From Acholoe squamosa (taxonomy: Eukaryota > Annelida > Polychaeta > Phyllodocida > Polynoidae), in NCBI GenBank assembly GCA_949317995.1, contig OX439043.1, positions 57,305,339 through 57,369,338 on the forward strand: a stretch of 64,000 nucleotides of DNA. The letters are read 5' to 3'. Made by a program: the position numbers and the translations under genes. The notes under the pieces were generated by a model. That model did not search any database. It saw only the letters and a list, made by a program, of their open reading frames with translations, and was not told the DNA's origin. Shown here in pieces: positions 3,535 through 45,088 of the stretch; the first letter of the stretch is position 1, and each line of letters opens with the position of its first letter.

Positions 3535-6500
3535 ATGGACAGCGCGGCGAAAGAGAGGGAGGAGGGTGGCGAGGAATCTTCGCTGATGAACCTTCCTGAT
3601 GATGTTATTTATGCCATATCGTTTTATTGCGATCTCCAAAGTCTTGGGAGGTTGTCGCGTGTTTGCAAACGGCTCTCGACTCTCCTGCGACAAGAATGTG
3701 TGTGGATATGGATGAGTCGTCGTCTGACAATGATCGGTGACACCCACCAAAGCGCGGGCCACAGGTGAGTCGAGAATGTCACTGTGGATTCAGTCGTTTG
3801 ACTTTGACGACGCCATTGATAATCATAATGTAAATGTTGACAGCGTTGTTTGTAAACAAACCCACCTGGCATCTGCCTCTCGTCTTGCCATGCCAGCAAG
3901 CAATTACTTAGACGAAGAGTAGAACCCCATACTTTATTGTTAGAGCGTGCAAAACGTGGGAGCATGATATATCTATGAGACACAATTGTCTTTGCCACTG
4001 TTGCCTGTTGGGAAAACAACGTGAAGTAGTGACGTGGTTTCCAGGCACCAGGCAAACGCGTGTAAACTCCATGTGCCACGCCCACCACATCACTGCCACC
4101 ACGACAGCAAGAACAAGTCCAGAGGAGTTGCATATCTTCATAACTTATGTTGCAATCAGAGTAGAGGCTATTAAATCTTAGCACTCTTAGCTAGGCACTT
4201 ACCTATTTTACAAAACTTTATTCTTTGAATTTTATCTATTGAGCAATGGAAAGAGCTAATGAAAAGCTAAATGGTAAATGACGGGGGACCACCCTCGTTT
4301 AAATAGGGTCCAAATTTGTGATCAAGCAAGTTGAATGCAGGAGAATGTAGTTCACTTCTATCACTATTTTTAATGATTTTCTGTGTTGAGAGGCTAGATT
4401 ATGCCTGATATGGATATTGATGGATATTATCCCTGTATAATAACTCAAAATGGTATATTTAGACTCAAGTTTTCCCCAATTTTAGCGATCACATGATCAA
4501 CATATCATATGGTAATCAACAAGGAGGATTTTGAAGAAGAAAAATTCCAGTTTCCTCTGTAAGTGCCATGAACAGATTATTTCCCAAATACCCATAAAAA
4601 AAGTCAAGGTAGGGCCAACAAATTAGGGTATGTAGCGTAACCTGGACACTACATTACCGTAATCTCCCGCGTATAAGACGCATCCTCTACGCCAAACAAA
4701 ATGCTGGGGAGTCTTATAGGATGTACTGAAATTGCGTCTTATACAAGGGGTAATTTACTATAGAAATGTACTAATCTTACAAATTTACGCATTAAAATGT
4801 GCGTCTTATACGCGAAAATGCATGTGCTGAGTTTGGGGTGCGTCTTATACATTAACTGATTCATATAACCTTTTTTTACCTTTTCTATAGGCCTCAAGGT
4901 GCGCTCCGTGTCAAGGAACTATGCCGGCGGTCAGTGAATTGGAAGCGTGGCCATGCACGTGACTCCAGATTGATCCATCATGCAGTCAAGTAAGTCCTTA
5001 TCGATGAACCTTTGAGCAAATGATGGAGAAGAAAGTAAGTTCTTAACACTCACAGGCTCATTCATGGAGCTATGTTCCAGTACAAAGAAATATTGATAGC
5101 TAGTACACATTACTTTCACTCCATTCCATAGACGTAATGTTCCCCCACAGTCAGGAATACAAGATACTGATTACCATATGTTGATCATGTGATTTACAGG
5201 CAAATGCCGTGGCTGCAGCAAGATGGTCCATACCTGTGGGTCTCATACAACGACTTGATCCGATGTTACCAGCAGCGGAATAATGGCCACCTTCAAGAAG
5301 TACCCACCAAGACATTGCCACACCACAACAGTGATGTCTGCCGCTTCGTTGTCAAGGATGGCTGCATCCTTAGTGGCTCCAGGTAATTTGATCTTAATGT
5401 CTACAATTTAATACTGAAAATGGGGAGGGGCAAAAAAAATAAAACAAGAAAATGCAATTAGATACAGGAGAGAGATGAGTTTTCATGATCATTTTTAGAA
5501 GAAAAAAAAATGTTGCAGATTAGTTTATGCATCTATTCATTCAGGATGCTTTCACTTTTCTCCACAGGAACAGCGGGATGTGTTGTCACAGCACTTACAG
5601 CGCTGAATTAGTGTGGTCAGTTCAGCATTGTCACAACAGCGACATCCAGGCCGTTGATTTTCATAACCATATTGCCATCTCTGGTTCACGAGATGCAACA
5701 GTCAAGGTAATGAGGCATTGTGTTTGTCTTAAATTTGTTGTGATACCTCCAAATGATGCCTCTTGTACAGATATGATGTGAAAGCAGTATTGTATAAATT
5801 TACTGAAACACCCTGTGTATAAGTAGAACTCATTTCTAATTCGGACCCTGAGCTTATGTCTCACCTATAAGCCTCACTCGGGTTCATGTGTTGTACATCT
5901 TATTGGTACTACCGGTACTGGTATTCTCATATATAAACCTTGCCTAGAAGGTGCACCCAGGGCAAAGAAAAATCATAAGAGGCGCAACTAAGGTTATCCC
6001 CTCTCTCTTATAAGCAATGCATTATCCTATCATTATAGCAAAGTTGCTATACGTCATCCTCACTACCAACGGATTCAAGTTCAAGGATAAATTTTATGTC
6101 CAGACTCATAGAACTGCCATGGGCACTCGTATGGCCCCAAACTTTGCAAGTCTGTTCATGGGAGCACTAGAAACCAAACTTCTGGCAGAAAGTCCCACCA
6201 AGCCAAGAATTTGGCTTAGATATATCGATGATACCTTCATCATCCTACCCAGCTTAGAAGAGGCTCGTGAATTCTTGGAATATTTGAATTATAAACATCA
6301 ATCCATCAAGTTCACTAGCGAATACAGTAGGGATCAATTTCCTCGATACAACAGTCTATATCACACCAGATAGCACCCTCAATACCAAATCGTATGTGAA
6401 ACCCACAGACGCACACACCTACTTGAATTTTCATTCCTACCACCCTCTAACACTCAAAAGGTCTATCCCATTCTCTCAACTCATCAGACTCCGCAAAATA

Positions 6501-16359: not shown

Positions 16360-16583
16360 GGGGAAAAGTCACAGTGCAAAAAAAAATTTCGACCTCCCCC
16401 CCCATAAGTGACAAAAATCGTGCGTGAACGTCCCCTTTTAGCCTATAGTAACCCGCGGGGTTTTCCACTGAAAACAGGTGAAATTATTTTGACCCCCCCA
16501 TCAGAGGTGTTGAAAAAATTCTGACCCCCCCCCCTCAAACCCACCAGCCCCCCCCCCCCTGTTGTTAAAAAATGATCACTCCC
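16360..16583 (+). mobile_element. Harbinger-type MITE, left end lost
   Basis: G/C-rich runs alternate with AAAAAATTCTGACCCCCC-like blocks and the unit closes with AAAAAATGATCACTCCC before TTA, the right end of the GGGAGTGGTCA family. The left terminal repeat is not recognisable. Confidence 0.55.
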
Positions 16584-17454
16584 TTAGAATGCTTCTACCT
16601 CCTTATCTTATACAAATCTAAAATGAGTCCAGTGTAACCAATCACATCTCGCCCTAGACAGTCATGAATACATTATGCATGATATACTGATAAGATAGTA
16701 CCAGGCACATGGTCTTCTACTGGAGCAAGAGGAGGCATTGATACAATGATAGAGAAGTAATACACGTGTACTCCCAGGTGAAGTTAGGCGTGTGTTTTTT
16801 TGTATGTGTGTGTTCTTTTAATATTAGGTTCTCTTTTATATGAGAAAATGTTAGAACAAGGGATGCATAATCCAGTGTCGTCTCATTGCTGCTTAGTTCA
16901 ATATCTTTTCATACCTTATTACCTGGGTAATACCATTATGAATACCTAGTTTGTTGGGGCTTTGTTTCATTTAATAACACAAAATAGTATGCAATAGTTA
17001 TAAAATGTTGTTGGTGACCCATTTGATTGTAGAAAATGGTAAAACGGTATACAAGGGTGTATATCACAGGCCAGATACAGGACACCTTTTAATAGTGTGA
17101 TTCAACAAGGTGAAGGGTAGCATAAATGGCGTGTGTATTGTATTTTATCTAACTATCTGAGCCTCAACAGTGCCTTTTTGCTCATAACCCCAGTTCCTTA
17201 TCCAGCCATAACGCACTCTGAGACCTTTTCTTCGTCTTCAAGAAGCTGCTGGTTTCAATCCGGACATGTTATAAAATTGGAGAAGTATACAATGTCAACT
17301 CCTCCATACGTTTCCAGTTAAAACCGTTTATGGTTCAACAGGGAATCGTTCCCCGGCCGCTGTGGCAGGAGGCGAGCTCGCTGTCCACTATACCAAGCCA
17401 ACCGTTGATAGAAAGCAAAGTACATCCAGTATTTGAAAATTTTTTCCCACATAC

Positions 17455-17637
17455 CTGATGTTTGCAGACCTCGTTAGCATAGATTTCAATGGAGCCTAGT
17501 GGAGTTATTAACAGAGAACCATCCTTAGATATCCTAGATGAACATGCCATGCCTAATTTCTCCATTTTGTTCGAAATAAATAAGAATCCATTGATTTTCC
17601 ACATCGATACGAGTCGGGACCCGCCCCGTCCGGCCAT
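17455..17637 (-). CDS. Candidate exon, minus member of a head-to-head paralogous pair
   Basis: On the minus strand an ATG at 17637 opens 61 codons up to a donor-like CATCAG|GTATGT at 17455/17454 (phase 0). It starts MAGRGGSRLVSM, then WKINGFLFISNKME, and ends with YANEVCKHQ. The plus-strand frame at 17707 has the same layout: 12 residues, then WKINGFLFIS, then 37 more residues aligning without a gap to a shared Y...VCK. About 23 of 47 aligned residues agree by eye. I do not recognise the family. Loss of identity without loss of frame suggests it was once, or still is, coding. Without splicing the frame runs on to 17335. It may be a first exon, a duplicated exon, or part of an unknown mobile element. 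Confidence 0.4.
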
Positions 17638-17706
17638 TCCTTGTTCGACGCGTGGCTGACCTAGTTCTTACATCTGGGCACCTATCCGCTTTGTAAACAA
17701 GACGCA

Positions 17707-17994
17707 ATGGCCGTGTACCGGGCCGTGTGCATTGGATCGTTATGGAAAATCAATGGATTCTTATTTATTTCAAAGAAAATGGAGACAAAATGTATGCAAA
17801 CACCAACTAGAGATCGTATATTTGGCGCTGCTAGAATAACAGGGCTTGACATCCTTGGATTATACCCGAAAAATGTGTGTAAAGGTGGAGGTATGTCGGG
17901 CAGAACGACAACATGGCCACGACGGCTTGGCAAACCGAGCGGATCGTATGCACTTACAAAATATCTTCTCATGGATTATTTCTTGGGTTATAAG
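17707..17994 (+). CDS. Candidate exon, plus member of a head-to-head paralogous pair
   Basis: The ATG at 17707 (CGCAATGGCC context) opens 96 codons ending in phase 0 at a good donor, TATAAG|GTAAGA (17995). It starts MAVYRAVCIGSL, then WKINGFLFISKKME, then RIFGAARITGLDILGLYPKN, VCKGGG and a basic patch TWPRRLGKPSG, closing with LLMDYFLGYK. A second possible donor, GAG|GTATGT, matches the donor position of the minus-strand partner within one base. Start codons are 70 bp apart, so the 69-bp gap would have to be a bidirectional promoter. It lies inside SUOX intron 1 on the SUOX strand. No known domain was recognised; no following exon was identified. Confidence 0.4.
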
Positions 17995-18038
17995 GTAAGA
18001 AATTAATACAAAATGGAGAAATATGTTCGATAAACGCC

Positions 18039-18155
18039 TTAATGTATGTTATGGGTACGCACTCGTGGGTTTATGGGTTAATAATCCACTCCCCCTTCGG
18101 GGTCGTGGATTATTAACCCATAAACCCACTTGTGCGTACCCATAACATACATTAA
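18039..18155. repeat. Long near-perfect hairpin flanked by TTAA
   Basis: About 55 bases starting TTAATGTATGTTATGGGTAC and reaching AATAATCCAC are followed by a CCCTTCGGGG turn and the inverse of the same sequence, ending GTACCCATAACATACATTAA. Only a few bases mismatch. TTAA at both ends would suit a piggyBac- or Kolobok-type target duplication, or it may be part of the palindrome. The UUCG turn would make any RNA copy very stable. Confidence 0.85.
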
Positions 18156-18471
18156 ACTCTAAGTATACGATGGTAGATTCCCTGCCCTAAACATTGGTCA
18201 TTGGGCAGCAGAATGATGAAGTTGGGTGTCTGGATAGGACCTTGCCAGCATCTATAGATATGGGGCCAGAATATTGCATTAGACCCATGTAAAGCGCCAT
18301 AATAGTGAGAGAATATCAGGACACATGCAGCCCTAGTTGCATAATGTTTGCTTGCATGTCGCTATTTACGTGTCCAATGCGGCTAAGTCATCCCAGTAAA
18401 TATTGACTTGTCTATGAGTGAAGAATAAGGGTATATCAAACAGAGGGGAAGGGTTGCATATATATTGACAG

Positions 18472-19594: not shown

Positions 19595-19692
19595 CGACCT
19601 TCTTCACATTGAGACTGTCTGTTGGCCTATAATGCACAAATGCATCTGAGTGCATTATAGGACAACAGACAGTCCCAATATGAAGAAGGAGT
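19595..19692. repeat. Inverted repeat with about 40-bp arms
   Basis: CCTTCTTCACATTGAGACTG and TCTGTTGGCCTATAATGCAC (from 19598) are mirrored by GTGCATTATAGGACAACAGA and CAGTCCCAATATGAAGAAGG (to 19689), around a short ATGCATCT-type loop. A third copy of the outer piece, GACCTTCTTCATGTG, lies at about 19802 beside the next MITE. No coding content. Probably a foldback-type element. Confidence 0.8.
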
Positions 19693-23102: not shown

Positions 23103-23702
23103 CTTTAGAGTGTCAGAGATAGGTCAATTGTGGGTCATGTAGGGATAGTGACAACCTTTGACAAGTTGTAGGTTGTTTGTCTCTCCATGTAGATGCATGG
23201 GTAATGAAGTAGGGGACATCTCATCCAACAACACACAGGTCAAGGGTTAGTTTGGTGTTTGAAATCACTTCACATATTGATGGGCTAAGGGTAGGCAGGG
23301 CAGTGTCAAATAGTATTTAGGGGCCTTGTGGATACTCGAGTGAAACAATCAAGTTTTTCTTTTTCTTCTCAAAGATTGGCCTCTATCTAGTATGGTGAGA
23401 TTTATATTGCAAATTCAAGTTTACCTAAGTATAAAATAGTGATGTATGGTGATCGACAGTTTGGTTTAGATGTATACGTATATGAAGTATTTACAAGTTA
23501 ACAAACGTATATATTCCTCTTTCTTTTCTTTTTTAGAGAATTGTGCTTCATCTACCTGTAAGTTTTCTTTCTTTCCAGATCTTGACCTTGAATGGTGTCG
23601 GCCTATGCCTACACCTTGAGTTATAATCATGCAAGAAATACATGTTCTCTCGTCTTTTCGTGTATTAAGTTTGATTCAATGATGTGCTCTTCTTCATTGC
23701 AG

Positions 23703-25201
23703 GGTTCACACTGTACTTGAAACAAAGAGCAACACAATGTAAAGAGGGTGTGGAGAAAAAAGACGTGACGGCAAACTTTGGTCTGCGAAATGAGAAACTT
23801 CCAACATACCGGCGTACCGAAGTTGAACAACATTCAGCCCAAGCCAAGCGGGTTTGGGTAACATTCAAAGATGGCGTCTATGACGTTACAGATTTTGCAG
23901 AAAGTCATCCAGGGGGCAGGAAGATCTTCTTGGCTGCTGGAAAGTCTTTAGAACCTTTCTTCTCAACTTATGCGCAACACATGAATGAAAATGTGCTTGA
24001 GATTATGGAGGAATTGCGCATTGGGAATATTCACCCTGATGACAAAGTCGTTATGAAAGATATAGATGCCAATGATCCTTTCAAGAATGATCCACCAAGG
24101 CATCCAGCATTATCCATCAACTCTGAGAAGCCCTTCAATGCTGAACCTCCAACAGAACTCCTGGCTGACAATTACCTCACCCCAAATGACTTATTCTTCA
24201 TTCGTAACCACCTCCCAGTACCGACGATCGAGAAAACCCATTCGATCAAAATTAGTGGAGATGGATGGAAAAGGCCTATTGTACTCAATGTCGATCAACT
24301 GAAGCAGCGGTTCAAGCAGCATACGATTACAGCAACCATACAATGCGCCGGTAACCGGCGCTCACATATGGCCAAATACAAAGGTGTACGCGGGTTGTCT
24401 TGGGGTATGACAGCCATAAGCAATGCTGAGTGGACGGGAGTCAAACTGTCCGATGTTCTTGCCTATGCTGGTATAAGGGAAGAAGATTATGAACATGTCA
24501 CCTTTGAAGGTAAAGATAAGGATGTAGAGGGTGCCCCGTACGCAGCATCCATTCCTGCTGCTACAGCATTTGACCCACGCAAGGATGTCCTCCTTGCTTT
24601 TGAGATGAACGGAGAGCCTCTACCATTAGATCACGGATATCCAATTAGGATAATTGCGCCAGGGATTGCTGGAGCGCGACAGGTGAAATGGCTGACTGGA
24701 ATCAATGTTAGCAAAAAGGAATGCCAAGGACACTGGCAACAGAATGACTATAAGCAGTTCAATCCATCTATTGACTGGCACAATGTAGATTTCACAAAGG
24801 CAGCTGCCATCCAAGAGTACCCTATCCAATCTGCCATATGTGAACCCGCAGAAGAGTCTGTGTTAGACGATGCAGAGGAGATCACCCTGAAAGGGTATGC
24901 GTGGAGCGGAGGTGGCCGGGGAATTGTCCGAGTGGATGTTTCATTGGATGGTGGGAAGACATGGGAGGTGGCGGATCTCCATGATGCAAAGCAGCCGATG
25001 CATCGTCAATGGGCATGGTCAATATGGAACATTACAATGAAGATACCAAGTAATATGAAGGGAAAGAAGCTAGACCTTGTCTGTAAGGCAACCGATACAT
25101 CACATAATTCACAACCTGAGTCAGCTGAGGGAATCTGGAACCTGCGTGGTCTTATCCACAATTCATGGCACCATGTTTCGGTCACTGTACCCAAACACTG
25201 A
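23703..25201 (+). CDS. SUOX: Sulfite oxidase main exon (haem and molybdopterin domains)
   Basis: Oxidises sulfite to sulfate in the mitochondrial intermembrane space and passes electrons to cytochrome c, the last step of cysteine and methionine breakdown. The acceptor is TTCATTGCAG at 23702. Numbering from the joined start (+13068): a cytochrome b5 domain with haem-ligand histidines in HPGG (His155) and YAQHM (His179); a linker; then the Moco domain with FFIRNHLPVP (Arg254), the molybdenum-ligand cysteine in QCAGNRR (Cys301), and DYKQFNP (Tyr436), the tyrosine needed in electron transfer in vertebrate SUOX. The C-terminal dimerisation domain has GYAWSGGGRGIVRVDVSLDG and IWNLRGLIHNSWHHV. All key residues are present. 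Joined length 585 versus about 545 in human, the excess being in the N-terminal part. No peroxisomal C-terminal signal, unlike plant enzymes. Using only this exon would give a protein lacking the presequence. Confidence 0.96.
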
Positions 25202-29602: not shown

Positions 29603-29900
29603 GGGGTATTCGCCAACACAATGTAAAATTTCTCAACACAACACGATTTTTTTTCGCGACACGTCACGAAGTTAACAATTCTCCACCAAGTAATAGTACT
29701 TGTTAATGATTGCAGCCACAATTTTGCCCAACATTTTCTTATTACCTATCATTCATATCCATTTAATCATGTTGGTGCAAACTATAAAAACAGATTAATT
29801 GGTCGTAATAACAAAGGGCAACGGTGCGTCTCTGTTCGGAGACCCAAGACCCGAGGTCCAAGGGCTGGGCCAGTAGTACAGGAGAGAAAGAATCGAGCCA

Positions 29901-30914
29901 ATGAAAGGAACTGAGTTCCCTGACTGTCCTTGGTCTCGAATTGCTGCTGACTTCTGTTATCATGTTGGAACAAACTACCTAGTAGATGTTGACTACTATT
30001 TAAGGGATATTGAGACAAGCAAAGTCACTAAAGGAGTTGACGCCGCACAGACTGTCGCCAAACTTAAGAAAATATTTGTTCATCAGGGCATCCCCGATAT
30101 ACTTGTCACAGACAATGGACCTCAGTTCAGTGCAAGAGACTTTGCAAACTTTGTAGATGAGTGGAAATTTGTGCATGTAACATCTTCGCTGAGATATCCA
30201 CAGTCAAATGGTGAGGCCGAGGGAGCCGTACAGACAGTCAGAGGTATTCTCAACAAAGCTACTGATGTGGACTTAGCATTATTAATGTACCGAAACACAC
30301 CATTCCATAATGGCTTCTCACCAGCGCAACTAAATATGGGCAGGAAATTAAAGACCAGAGTCCCCTGCTATCCATCTGAACTCTTACCAAGCACACCAGA
30401 ACCGGTTGTTGTACGAAAAAAGGAGAGGATGTACAGAGCCAGTATGAAACTGAACTATGACCAACAACACCGTGTGAAAGAAGCCGGAGAGTTATCAGCA
30501 GGTGACAAAGTGTGGCTCCCTGATCTCAAGACTCATGGCACAATTGTAGGCAAAGCCAATGGACCGAGATCATATGTCATTTCAACCCCAACAGGCCTCC
30601 TGAGGCGAAACCGCCGTATGACTAGAAATGTTGGACTACCACCTGCTACACTACCAATACCAGGTCCACCTAATACAGGACCTATTCCAGCAGTTCATCC
30701 TCCTACACCAAGACGTGACATACCATCACATGCAGTCACCCCAAGGGTTGACTCACCTGACAAACCAACACTGAGGATTGATCAGCCGGGTACCCCTTCA
30801 TATGTGAATGAACCTGATGACCCGCCAGGGGCTGATATTACTGAGCCTCGTAGGTCTGGGAGAGCCAGATCTGCACCTAAGCTTCTGATTGAAAACATGG
30901 GAAAGACTCAATGA
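29901..30914 (+). mobile_element. Ty3/Gypsy-type integrase fragment (337 codons)
   Basis: A 337-codon open frame encodes a retroelement integrase core and tail. The DDE triad is visible: Asp17 (AADFC), Asp71 (VTDNGPQFS) and Glu107 (SNGEAEG), with the usual 35 residues between the last two. Around it are the family blocks HQGIPDILVTDNGPQ, YPQSNGEAEGAV and ALLMYRNTPFHNGFSPAQL. After the core come a basic segment and a proline/threonine-rich C-terminal tail. Gag, protease, reverse transcriptase, RNase H and the zinc-binding part of integrase are missing upstream, where a G-rich MITE-like repeat lies instead. The open frame is intact, so truncation is recent or the fragment is kept. The first ATG is simply the first in the frame; the real polyprotein would have begun far upstream. 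Confidence 0.88.
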
Positions 30915-43191: not shown

Positions 43192-43246
43192 CCCAAGTGA
43201 GATTACCCTCAGTTCTCGGGCCTCAGTTGAACCGGGGCAGATCTAA

Positions 43247-43540
43247 GGGAGTGGTCATTATTTATCAACAGGGGGGGGAGGATGGTGGGTTTGATGGGGG
43301 GGGGCGTAAAAATTTCAGACCGAGGGGGGGTAACAAAATTTTGACCCCTCTTGAGGGGAGGGCTAAAAAAATTTACCCTCTTTTGAGCAAAAAAAGCCGT
43401 GCGCTACTATAGCTCAAAGAGGGGCGCGAAAATCCTCTGCAAAAAATTTTGACTGTCGTCGAGGGGGGGCGTAAAAAATTTTCGCATGTCCGCGCAGAAA
43501 ACCACCGGCCGCTCTCTGTTGATAAATAATGACCACTCCC
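43247..43540. mobile_element. Complete Harbinger-type MITE with TAA duplication
   Basis: Perfect terminal inverted repeats of 23 bp (GGGAGTGGTCATTATTTATC then AAC, mirrored at 43518-43540), flanked by TAA on both sides. The 294-bp interior is G runs with AAAAATTT(T/C)(A/G)AC blocks, partly symmetrical. Best copy of its family here. Confidence 0.88.
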
Positions 43541-45088
43541 TAAAAGGAAATGGTCTAGAGGGCACAGCCAAGAAAATTTGGTCGGGGGGGGGGGCACGTG
43601 CAAGGAGACGGCCTCGCACCTTGTTTAATAGGACCCCATTTTTGGTTAAAGGAGGCTGGTGCACCCCTCCCCCCCCTCCAACCTCTAAATATATCTGCCA
43701 CTGTGAGTGTCATATTAACTATATGATCGTCTCTGCCCACTGCCAAACTACCGACCCCCTAAATCCCAGATTCCTGAAGTAATCCACCACCCATAATTTC
43801 AATACATTTGGAGTTACCGCCCCTAATTTCAAGGCATTTGAAGGGACTACCTGAGATTTGAAGACATATCTACAGCATGGACCTTATTATGTGCAGTTAT
43901 TGTAAATGTACAGTTATGGTGCAAAGAAGATATTTACTGCCTCCTATTTTTGAGGTGCACAAAGAGTTACTACCCCCTATTTCTGAGGTTTAACACAGTC
44001 ACCGCCTCCGCTTTTAGGGCCCGTTTGGCAGTCGGTAGCCTATTCTATTGCTACCTGAGTAGTCCCCCCGGCCTTTATATAGGCCTAGAAAACATTTTCA
44101 AACTTTTTCTCTGATTTCATGGATACCCCGATACTAGCCTAATACATGAAACCTCTGTTGGTATATTCTGTTCCTTATTTTCCTCCTGGCTTATTCTTTT
44201 AAGAAATACAAATAAGCAGGTAGGAGACAAATAAGCAGGTAGGGGCCCCACCTCTCTCGTCAATAGAGGTGGGGCCGGCAACCAGCCAACTGCCCCCCCC
44301 CCCCCCATGGCCATCTGAGATCTGACAGAGGATTGTGGGTAATCTCTCATCTTGCCCTGCACCCACAGAAAACTGCCCCTGCCTCTATCTTAATCACCTT
44401 GAGTACCTGTCTGGGGTACCTGTCCATTGTTTTAGGTGTGAATGGAGGGGATTAGGGAGCATTCATTATTTATGGCAGGGGTGGGGGTGAGCAAATTGAG
44501 GGGGGGGCCATTTATTTTCAGGGTATTCTTAGGGGGGGGGCCAAATATTTTCAGGGTATTCTTAGAGGGGGGGCCGTTTGTTTTTTACCTATTCTTAGAG
44601 GGGGGGCCATTTATTTTTAGGGTATTTATCCAAAATGTCGCAAATTTCGTCACCATAAAATGTCTTTTAATGTATCAGTGACTCCTTTTGAAAGACTAAA
44701 GGTAATCAAATTGATCCAGTTCAGTGAAATCTAATTGGATGGAACTATATTTAGAGATCTTTTTCAATTGATCAATACCAATGTGCATTTCTTGTTGATG
44801 ACTACCAGTACATGCAGCTACAGCTGCTTTTTAACCTATTTCATCTAGAAGTAGCATATTCTAATAGAGATGATACATGGTATGTACTATCTTCCAAAGA
44901 ATCTGAGTCTCTCTTATGAACAACAAGACTATTCTACAAAAAAAAAATACCTTGTCTATAAGGTGTATCTGAGTTGAGACCAATTCTATCACCTATCCCT
45001 TGGAGTCTATTAACCCATTAAGGGCAGAAGGCACATGAGTTATCTGGCCATGGGGACAGCCTTTAAATTTCCTAGGAGTAAGGGCCTA

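What the first reader, a model, noticed from the sequence alone, without database searches (positions are those of the whole stretch)
17455..17994. Head-to-head pair of paralogous exons of an unknown family inside the SUOX intron
Two divergent frames start 70 bp apart. Each has 12 residues, then WKINGFLFIS, then a stretch that aligns without gaps for 47 codons, to a shared Y...VCK, with about half the residues identical by eye. Each is followed by a plausible splice donor. Gapless drift after an inverted duplication is what coding constraint leaves behind. The 69-bp gap would have to be a bidirectional promoter. I recognise no family, so this may be an undescribed gene pair or a new type of mobile gene.
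Basis: partly seen in the sequence, partly recalled or inferred. Interest (0 to 1): 0.72.

Follow-up and report, generated by a model that had tools for sequence, protein, structure and literature searches.

The report
Non-autonomous Crypton transposon with hairpin end
The two look-alike 'exons' are not genes but the middle of a 1-kilobase jumping DNA element present in well over a hundred copies in this animal genome; its folded hairpin end, shared with elements that carry a tyrosine recombinase, hints that it may move much like bacterial integron cassettes.

Summary
The inverted pair is real, but it is the palindromic core of a 1018-bp mobile element (F1, 17145-18162) repeated through the genome. 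The frames are not coding: 148 of 150 scored copies carry stops, one stop is shared by 36 of 41 aligned copies, and substitutions show no third-position excess.

F1 has a left end TTATCTMAC, a tRNA-like Pol III promoter, the palindrome, a ~120-nt 3' hairpin whose arms co-vary (32 of 55 pairs) around persistent loops, and an end GCTWA. Seven empty-site alignments from five copies show no target-site duplication; the target is TA-N7^N-TA.

A second family, F2, has this plan. So does a Crypton (DUF3504 tyrosine recombinase) element here: TTATTACAC, 3' hairpin with the same apex, end TTTA, right flank N-TA in 17 of 20, and its own ~1.2-kb non-autonomous derivative with a central palindrome.

Best explanation: a non-autonomous Crypton-type element. 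Its direct partner was not found, and the left half of the target rule is weak in the Crypton (5 of 20). The off-centre single-point junction and strand-specific hairpin suggest, but do not show, integron-like single-strand recombination.

The parts
17145..18162 (+). F1 element, 1018 bp; oriented with the hairpin (3') end on the right
   Evidence: homology of complete genomic copies stops here; empty sites
17145..17153 (+). left end TTATCTAAC; F2 has TTATACCAC, the Crypton TTATTACAC
17136..17137 (+). left half of target site, TA at -9,-8
   Evidence: 43 of 48 F1+F2 left junctions
17332..17403 (-). tRNA-like segment with A and B boxes (A ~17385-17395, B ~17342-17352), T4 at 17323-17320
   Evidence: A box exact in 39 of 41 F1 copies, 43 nt from B box in 39 of 41; conserved while flanks differ 23-40% between subfamilies A and B; no ARAGORN hit at default, 16 of 41 at -ps90
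17548..17608 (.). left arm of the central palindrome (the finding's left 'exon')
   Evidence: 85% complementary to 17736-17796
17736..17796 (.). right arm of the central palindrome (the finding's right 'exon')
   Evidence: 227-bp self-inverted match 17559-17785
17338..17637 (-). left open frame of the finding; not coding
17707..18003 (+). right open frame of the finding; not coding
17993..18022 (+). AGGTAAGAAATTRATACAAAATGGAGRAAT, a DNA word kept between this F1 copy and F2 (altered in its second half in the subfamily B copy aligned)
18039..18155 (.). terminal 3' hairpin: ~24-bp stem, 2x2 loop, ~25-bp stem, apical interruption (GA/GA on the minus strand) and GAA apex
18156..18162 (+). right end ACTCTAA (ACGCTAA in most other subfamily A copies; subfamily B and F2 end AGCTTA)
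18164..18165 (+). right half of target site, TA at +2,+3
   Evidence: 38 of 45 F1+F2 right junctions

Best explanation
F1 is a non-autonomous DNA transposon of the Crypton type, a cargo moved in trans by a DUF3504 tyrosine recombinase (YR). Shown: it is dispersed, has fixed ends, leaves no target-site duplication, enters TA-N7^N-TA sites, ends in a structurally conserved hairpin, and shares this end plan with a YR-encoding element and that element's own 1.2-kb derivative. Inferred: a YR recognises the hairpin end and joins TTAT... and ...TTA to a TA-N8-TA target, probably from a circular or single-stranded intermediate. Because the junction is a single point 3 nt off the centre of a symmetric site, exchange of one strand followed by replication fits best. 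The inverted 'exons' are the element's central palindrome, a feature also seen in F2 and in the Crypton derivative; its role is not known to me.
For: Repeat: 40 of 40 scored copies at least 94% identical, of 3928 first-look candidates. Ends and no duplication: seven empty-site alignments from five copies. Target: TA at -9,-8 in 43 of 48 and at +2,+3 in 38 of 45, against 7.4% TA in the window. Hairpin: 95.6% of cells paired, 32 of 55 pairs doubly changed, covariation 0.405 against 0.121 shuffled and at most 0.062 slid. Second family F2 with the same plan. Crypton link: DUF3504 at 2.8e-28 and Phage_integrase at 3.8e-07; best PDB match QRICH1, 5.4e-10, a gene that PMC3212892 derives from Cryptons; left end TTATTACAC; 3' hairpin with the same apex; right flank TA in 17 of 20, 15 of 18 distinct. 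The apex motif gives 42 hits in 362,789 held bases (loci overlap, so copies are fewer) and 0 in 3 block-shuffles. Of 40 scored Crypton 3' ends, 13 have a YR match less than 1.7 kb upstream; of the other 27, 14 pair with a left end at 1154-1433 bp. The derivative's middle is a palindrome.
Against: No autonomous element with F1's own terminal sequences was found; the link rests on structure and short end words, not on sequence homology (nothing better than E 0.14 between F1/F2 and three Crypton loci). The left half of the target rule is weak for the Crypton: 5 of 20 TA; of the two further copies, L068 has TA on the left but CA on the right, and L069 AC on the left and TA on the right. L069's hairpin is shortened. 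One of the three Crypton loci, L067, shows no such hairpin in its flanks. F1A has AAC rather than CAC in its left end. In the covariation test one measure, further pair types, did not stand out (44 of 500 shuffles as high), and the sequences are related. PMC8969392 (passages) calls Cryptons generally low in copy number. Strand-specific exchange is not shown.
Confidence: 0.8

Rival explanations
1. F1 is a non-autonomous Helitron or Helentron (HINE) moved by rolling-circle replication; the 3' hairpin is the terminator.
For: 3' hairpin, no duplication, and 87 Helitron_like_N matches in the genome. HINEs are abundant in the Pacific oyster (PMC7492417, passages read).
Against: No 5' TC / 3' CTRR with A^T target and no TT target; the target is TA-N7^N-TA. 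The stem is 57-60 bp, against a 16-20 nt palindrome in canonical Helitrons and 5-10 bp palindromes in the mite HINEs (PMC4067079, passages). No subterminal inverted repeats were seen at the ends.
Confidence: 0.1
2. A tRNA-derived retroposon (SINE-like), inserted by target-primed reverse transcription with a 3' stem-loop.
For: A and B boxes at tRNA spacing, T4 after them.
Against: The promoter points away from the hairpin and lies ~260 bp from the left end. There is no duplication. F1 copies start at the same left base, and one search's 40 of 40 keep the left end, though that query selects for it.
Confidence: 0.04
3. A member of an undescribed transposon superfamily whose recombinase is neither Crypton nor Helitron; the resemblance to the Crypton end is convergent.
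For: No terminal sequence homology to the Crypton; the left half-site differs.
Against: Shared TTATnnCAC...TTA, the apex motif, N-TA right flank, and a ~1-kb derivative with a central palindrome.
Confidence: 0.05
4. A pair of divergent coding exons with a bidirectional promoter, as first proposed.
For: Two frames open in the window copy, donor-like GT after each; dN/dS between the arms 0.61, against 0.91-1.76 in the five other frames.
Against: Shared stops, no third-position excess, high copy number.
Confidence: 0.01

Closest known systems
Animal Crypton transposons and their non-autonomous derivatives (CryptonA/CryptonI; PMC3212892, passages read; Eulor5/6 as ancient Crypton repeats, PMC5753468, passages read)
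   Same: YR-type system; animal Cryptons reported without terminal repeats; non-autonomous copies outnumber autonomous ones; in Eulor5/6 the similarity lies especially at the termini.
   Different: The main texts of both contain no occurrence of hairpin, palindrom or stem-loop. The ~120-nt co-varying hairpin and the TA-N8-TA target are not described in the passages seen.
Integron attC sites and cassettes (PMC2727003, passages read)
   Same: A YR acts on a folded single strand; imperfect palindrome with conserved interruptions but little conserved sequence.
   Different: Bacterial, with an attI platform and extrahelical single bases; here 2x2 loops and a GNA apex, dispersed targets; single-strand reaction untested. 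Besides QRICH1 the YR's only PDB sequence match is an integron integrase, 2a3v, E 0.52, too weak to count.
Strand-biased circularising integrative elements, SE-6945 (PMC9345347, passages read)
   Same: YR elements whose circle forms from one strand.
   Different: Bacterial; 6-bp spacer in the circle junction; its authors found no attC-like inverted repeats at the att sites.
Helentron/HINE and DINE-1 elements (PMC4067079, PMC7492417, passages read)
   Same: Non-autonomous, abundant, 3' palindrome, no duplication found.
   Different: subTIRs, short palindrome, TT target.

Membership tests
Crypton (non-autonomous member) | no terminal inverted repeats, no target-site duplication | tested here: met
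   seven empty-site alignments, five copies, one of them approximate; end sequences
Crypton (non-autonomous member) | ends shared with an element that encodes a DUF3504 tyrosine recombinase | tested here: inconclusive
   same end plan, apex and right half-site as the L068 family, but no sequence homology to F1/F2 beyond short words
Crypton (non-autonomous member) | short direct repeats at the termini (fungal/oomycete Cryptons) | tested here: inconclusive
   TTA at both ends in F1B, F2 and the Crypton, TTA and mostly TAA in F1A; animal Cryptons reported without any
Crypton (non-autonomous member) | moved by the YR | not testable with these tools
   needs an assay
Helitron | 5' TC, 3' CTRR, insertion between A and T | tested here: not met
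Helentron/HINE | subTIRs and TT insertion | tested here: not met
tRNA-derived SINE | A and B boxes | tested here: met
   (F1: A box exact in 39 of 41, B box at most one mismatch in 33 of 41; F2 weaker: A box one mismatch in 8 of 8, B box 1-3 mismatches)
tRNA-derived SINE | promoter at the 5' end of the element, target-site duplication | tested here: not met
integron attC-like site | conserved folded hairpin with strand-specific interruptions | tested here: met
   covariation; exact apex on minus strand in 27, on plus in 2, absent in 14, not delimited in 6 of 49 copies
integron attC-like site | only the folded strand is recombined | not testable with these tools
   inferred from single-point, off-centre junction
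protein-coding exon pair | codon-level constraint | tested here: not met

The most novel reading that the evidence does not exclude
Animal Crypton-type elements, autonomous and non-autonomous, carry an attC-like folded 3' hairpin and integrate as a single strand at TA-N8-TA sites, so that integron-style single-strand tyrosine recombination exists in animal genomes and has spread hundreds of passenger elements.
Probability: 0.33. Interest if true: 0.85.

Novelty: new variant of a known kind. Interest (0 to 1): 0.52.

Why it matters
Cryptons are described as hard to delimit because they lack recognisable ends (PMC3212892, PMC8969392, passages). A terminal hairpin with a recognisable apex and a fixed target rule would make their ends, passengers and empty sites findable by computer, and would make their integration mechanism directly testable with oligonucleotides. 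It also warns that inverted repeats inside such elements can imitate divergent paralogous exons.

Tried and rejected
Coding exons: rejected. Helitron/Helentron: end and target rules not met. Rfam: only sub-threshold matches, mostly miRNA models on the hairpins, and none on the tRNA-like part (the one tRNA match, L041:444-524, lies outside the element); no hammerhead listed, so a retrozyme was dropped. ARAGORN at default found no tRNA, at -ps90 16 of 41 F1 and 0 of 8 F2. Replitrons: literature search only, not pursued. Empty sites for the Crypton itself: none spanning the junction in the part of the list shown, the first 30 rows. F1's own autonomous partner could not be sought by similarity, because only the best 40-150 candidates are scored.

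Statements about print rest on the listings of searches and the passages of the papers named (of PMC10394393 I saw part 1 of 3). Repbase and Dfam were not available, so F1 may be catalogued there. That Eulor repeats may be palindromic, and that GNA triloops and tandem G-A pairs are stable in DNA, are from recall.

Left out before counts. One search gave junction-spanning alignments for seven copies; one search showed five; L027 (65-68% identity) and L041 (TA repeats) were not looked at. In one search, L018's left junction (its flank holds a second TTATCT that misled the script) and copies without a recognisable end were dropped: 48 left and 45 right junctions from 49 copies. The 41 F1 copies are the distinct ones among the loci held then. 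Alignment A1 used 14 chosen hairpins of the 27 F1 hairpins. The script was given 18 of the 151 listed YR matches; the rest I compared by eye. The arms were found by searching for the word GGAAAATCAAYGGATTC, so its presence there is partly by construction; both arms of all seven elements had it, and one search shows it without that selection.

Full report
What was checked. The two divergent frames are there: 69 bp apart, sharing WKINGFLFIS, in one gapless inverted register. They are the arms of a 227-bp imperfect palindrome.

It is a repeat. A search of the window's own genome (1.48 Gb, 63 contigs) with the 540 bp gave 40 of 40 scored copies at 94% identity or more, out of 3928 first-look candidates; with the right frame as protein, 150 of 150 scored candidates matched, out of 11,288. 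Twenty copies fetched with flanks begin to match at 17145 and, where complete, stop near 18162; others are cut short or differ in the hairpin. The element, here F1, is 1018 bp in the window.

It does not code. By my reading, all but two of the 150 rows have stops in the frame. Among 41 aligned copies a stop at right codon 91 is present in 36 and at left codon 43 in 15; mean diversity at codon positions 1, 2, 3 is 0.114/0.132/0.102 (right) and 0.083/0.115/0.118 (left). Arm differences are 20/16/20 of 49. dN/dS between subfamilies in the named frames: right 2.63, undefined, 3.47, 1.23, 1.91; left 2.29, 2.84, undefined, 0.75, undefined, on few changes; the other two forward frames of the right arm give 0.13-0.79. 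The word TGGAAAATCAATGGATTCT (right arm) and its complement without the outermost bases (left arm) are identical in the two F1 and two F2 copies aligned without any selection for them, third positions included, which is what a DNA site, not a protein, would show.

Anatomy. From left to right: TTATCTMAC; a tRNA-like segment on the minus strand (A box exact in 39 of 41, B box at most one mismatch in 33 of 41, spacing 43 in 39 of 41; in F2 weaker); the palindromic core; the word AGGTAAGAAATTRATACAAAATGGAG (F1A and F2; altered in the F1B copy); the 3' hairpin; GCTAA or GCTTA. Subfamilies A and B differ by 23-40% outside the tRNA-like part and the core and by about 50% in the hairpin, but by 3-13% inside them; L015 has B's left end joined to A's next block. 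The hairpin arms change together: 95.6% of cells pair and 32 of 55 pairs have compensatory changes; covariation 0.405 against 0.121 shuffled; only the count of further pair types is unremarkable, 44 of 500 shuffles as high (14 chosen of 27 hairpins, related to each other). DNA folding gives z from -15 to -19 for six strands of three hairpins, with a mid-stem 2x2 loop and an apical interruption in all six. The apex reads GA-N4/5-GNA-N4/5-GA on the minus strand in 27 of 49 copies, on the plus strand in 2, is absent in 14, and 6 were not delimited. Near-perfect arms with persistent loops argue against simple palindrome correction (inference).

Insertion. Joined flanks hit uninterrupted copies; seven alignments from five insertions were inspected, with nothing duplicated or lost in the clean ones; L028/L022 is approximate. 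Junctions show TA at -9,-8 in 43 of 48 and at +2,+3 in 38 of 45, that is TA-N7^N-TA; TA makes up 7.4% of dinucleotides in the window.

A second family. F2 (L025:4405-5225, and 40 of 40 scored copies at 92% or more of 3786 candidates) is about 67% like F1 in the core, has the same order of parts, a ~121-nt hairpin, TTATACCAC at the left and AGCTTA at the right in the eight copies aligned.

The recombinase link. The genome holds many DUF3504 (Crypton) matches (151, from 150 of 621 candidates scored). Two copies, L068 and L069, are 97.6% alike over 3.09 kb with an open frame of 352 codons hitting DUF3504 and Phage_integrase; the best PDB match is QRICH1. Their left end is TTATTACACC. The 3' end is a hairpin with the apex TC-GTCC-TAC-GGAC-TC and a mid-stem TC/TC loop, ending GGGTTTA. 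L069's hairpin is shortened. The apex motif gives 42 hits in the 362,789 bases then held (overlapping loci counted more than once), all but two in F1/F2; the two are L068 and another repeat, L022 near 5732. Three block-shuffles gave none. Of 40 scored 3' ends, 13 have a YR match within 1.7 kb upstream. Fourteen of the other 27 pair with a left end (itself capped at 40) to make elements of 1154-1433 bp: a non-autonomous derivative. A 300-bp piece of one has a central palindrome, which the autonomous L068 lacks. Right flanks are N-TA in 17 of 20: 11 of 11 from the longer group (10 of the 11 with a YR match; three of the 11 flanks identical, so not independent) and 6 of 9 from the derivative. Left flanks are TA only in 5 of 20. 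L067, a third YR locus, shows no such hairpin in its flanks.

Reading. I take F1 as a non-autonomous Crypton-type element whose direct partner was not found. The off-centre, single-point junction in a symmetric site and the strand-specific apex are what a folded single strand exchanged by a tyrosine recombinase and finished by replication would leave, as at attC (PMC2727003, passages). This step is inferred. The gene nearby is sulfite oxidase (508-codon frame 23675-25201); that F1 lies in its intron is plausible, but the upstream exon was not verified.

Literature. The main texts of PMC3212892 and PMC5753468 contain no occurrence of hairpin, palindrom or stem-loop. The listings of searches showed me no paper describing this end. 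Repbase was not available.

Noticed in passing
   Followed up: partly
window 6014-6373 and 29877-30914 (+): Fragments of a reverse transcriptase (RVT_1, below its cut-off) and of an integrase core (rve).
   Followed up: no
L112 (G000:C14:8928020-8928319): The Crypton's own 1.2-kb derivative has nested central inverted repeats (27 and 42 nt arms) that the autonomous copy lacks; F1 and F2 have central palindromes too. Why passengers but not the autonomous element carry one is unexplained.
   Followed up: partly
L022 near 5732 and L028 flanks: A further repeat with the same GA-GNA-GA hairpin apex, into which an F1 copy (L028) inserted.
   Followed up: no
L006, L053: Hairpin apex inverted relative to the other copies (motif on the plus strand).
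   Followed up: no
L056 near 1500: An F1 copy starts 2 bp after the right end of an F2 copy, so F2's own end supplied the TA half-site.
   Followed up: no
L028:95-334, L012:4176-4379, L043:421-529, window 19598-19689: Other long foldback hairpins of unrelated sequence.
   Followed up: no
window 16407-16586 and 43243-43541: Dispersed repeat sequence that also occurs in the left flank of the L069 Crypton copy.
   Followed up: no
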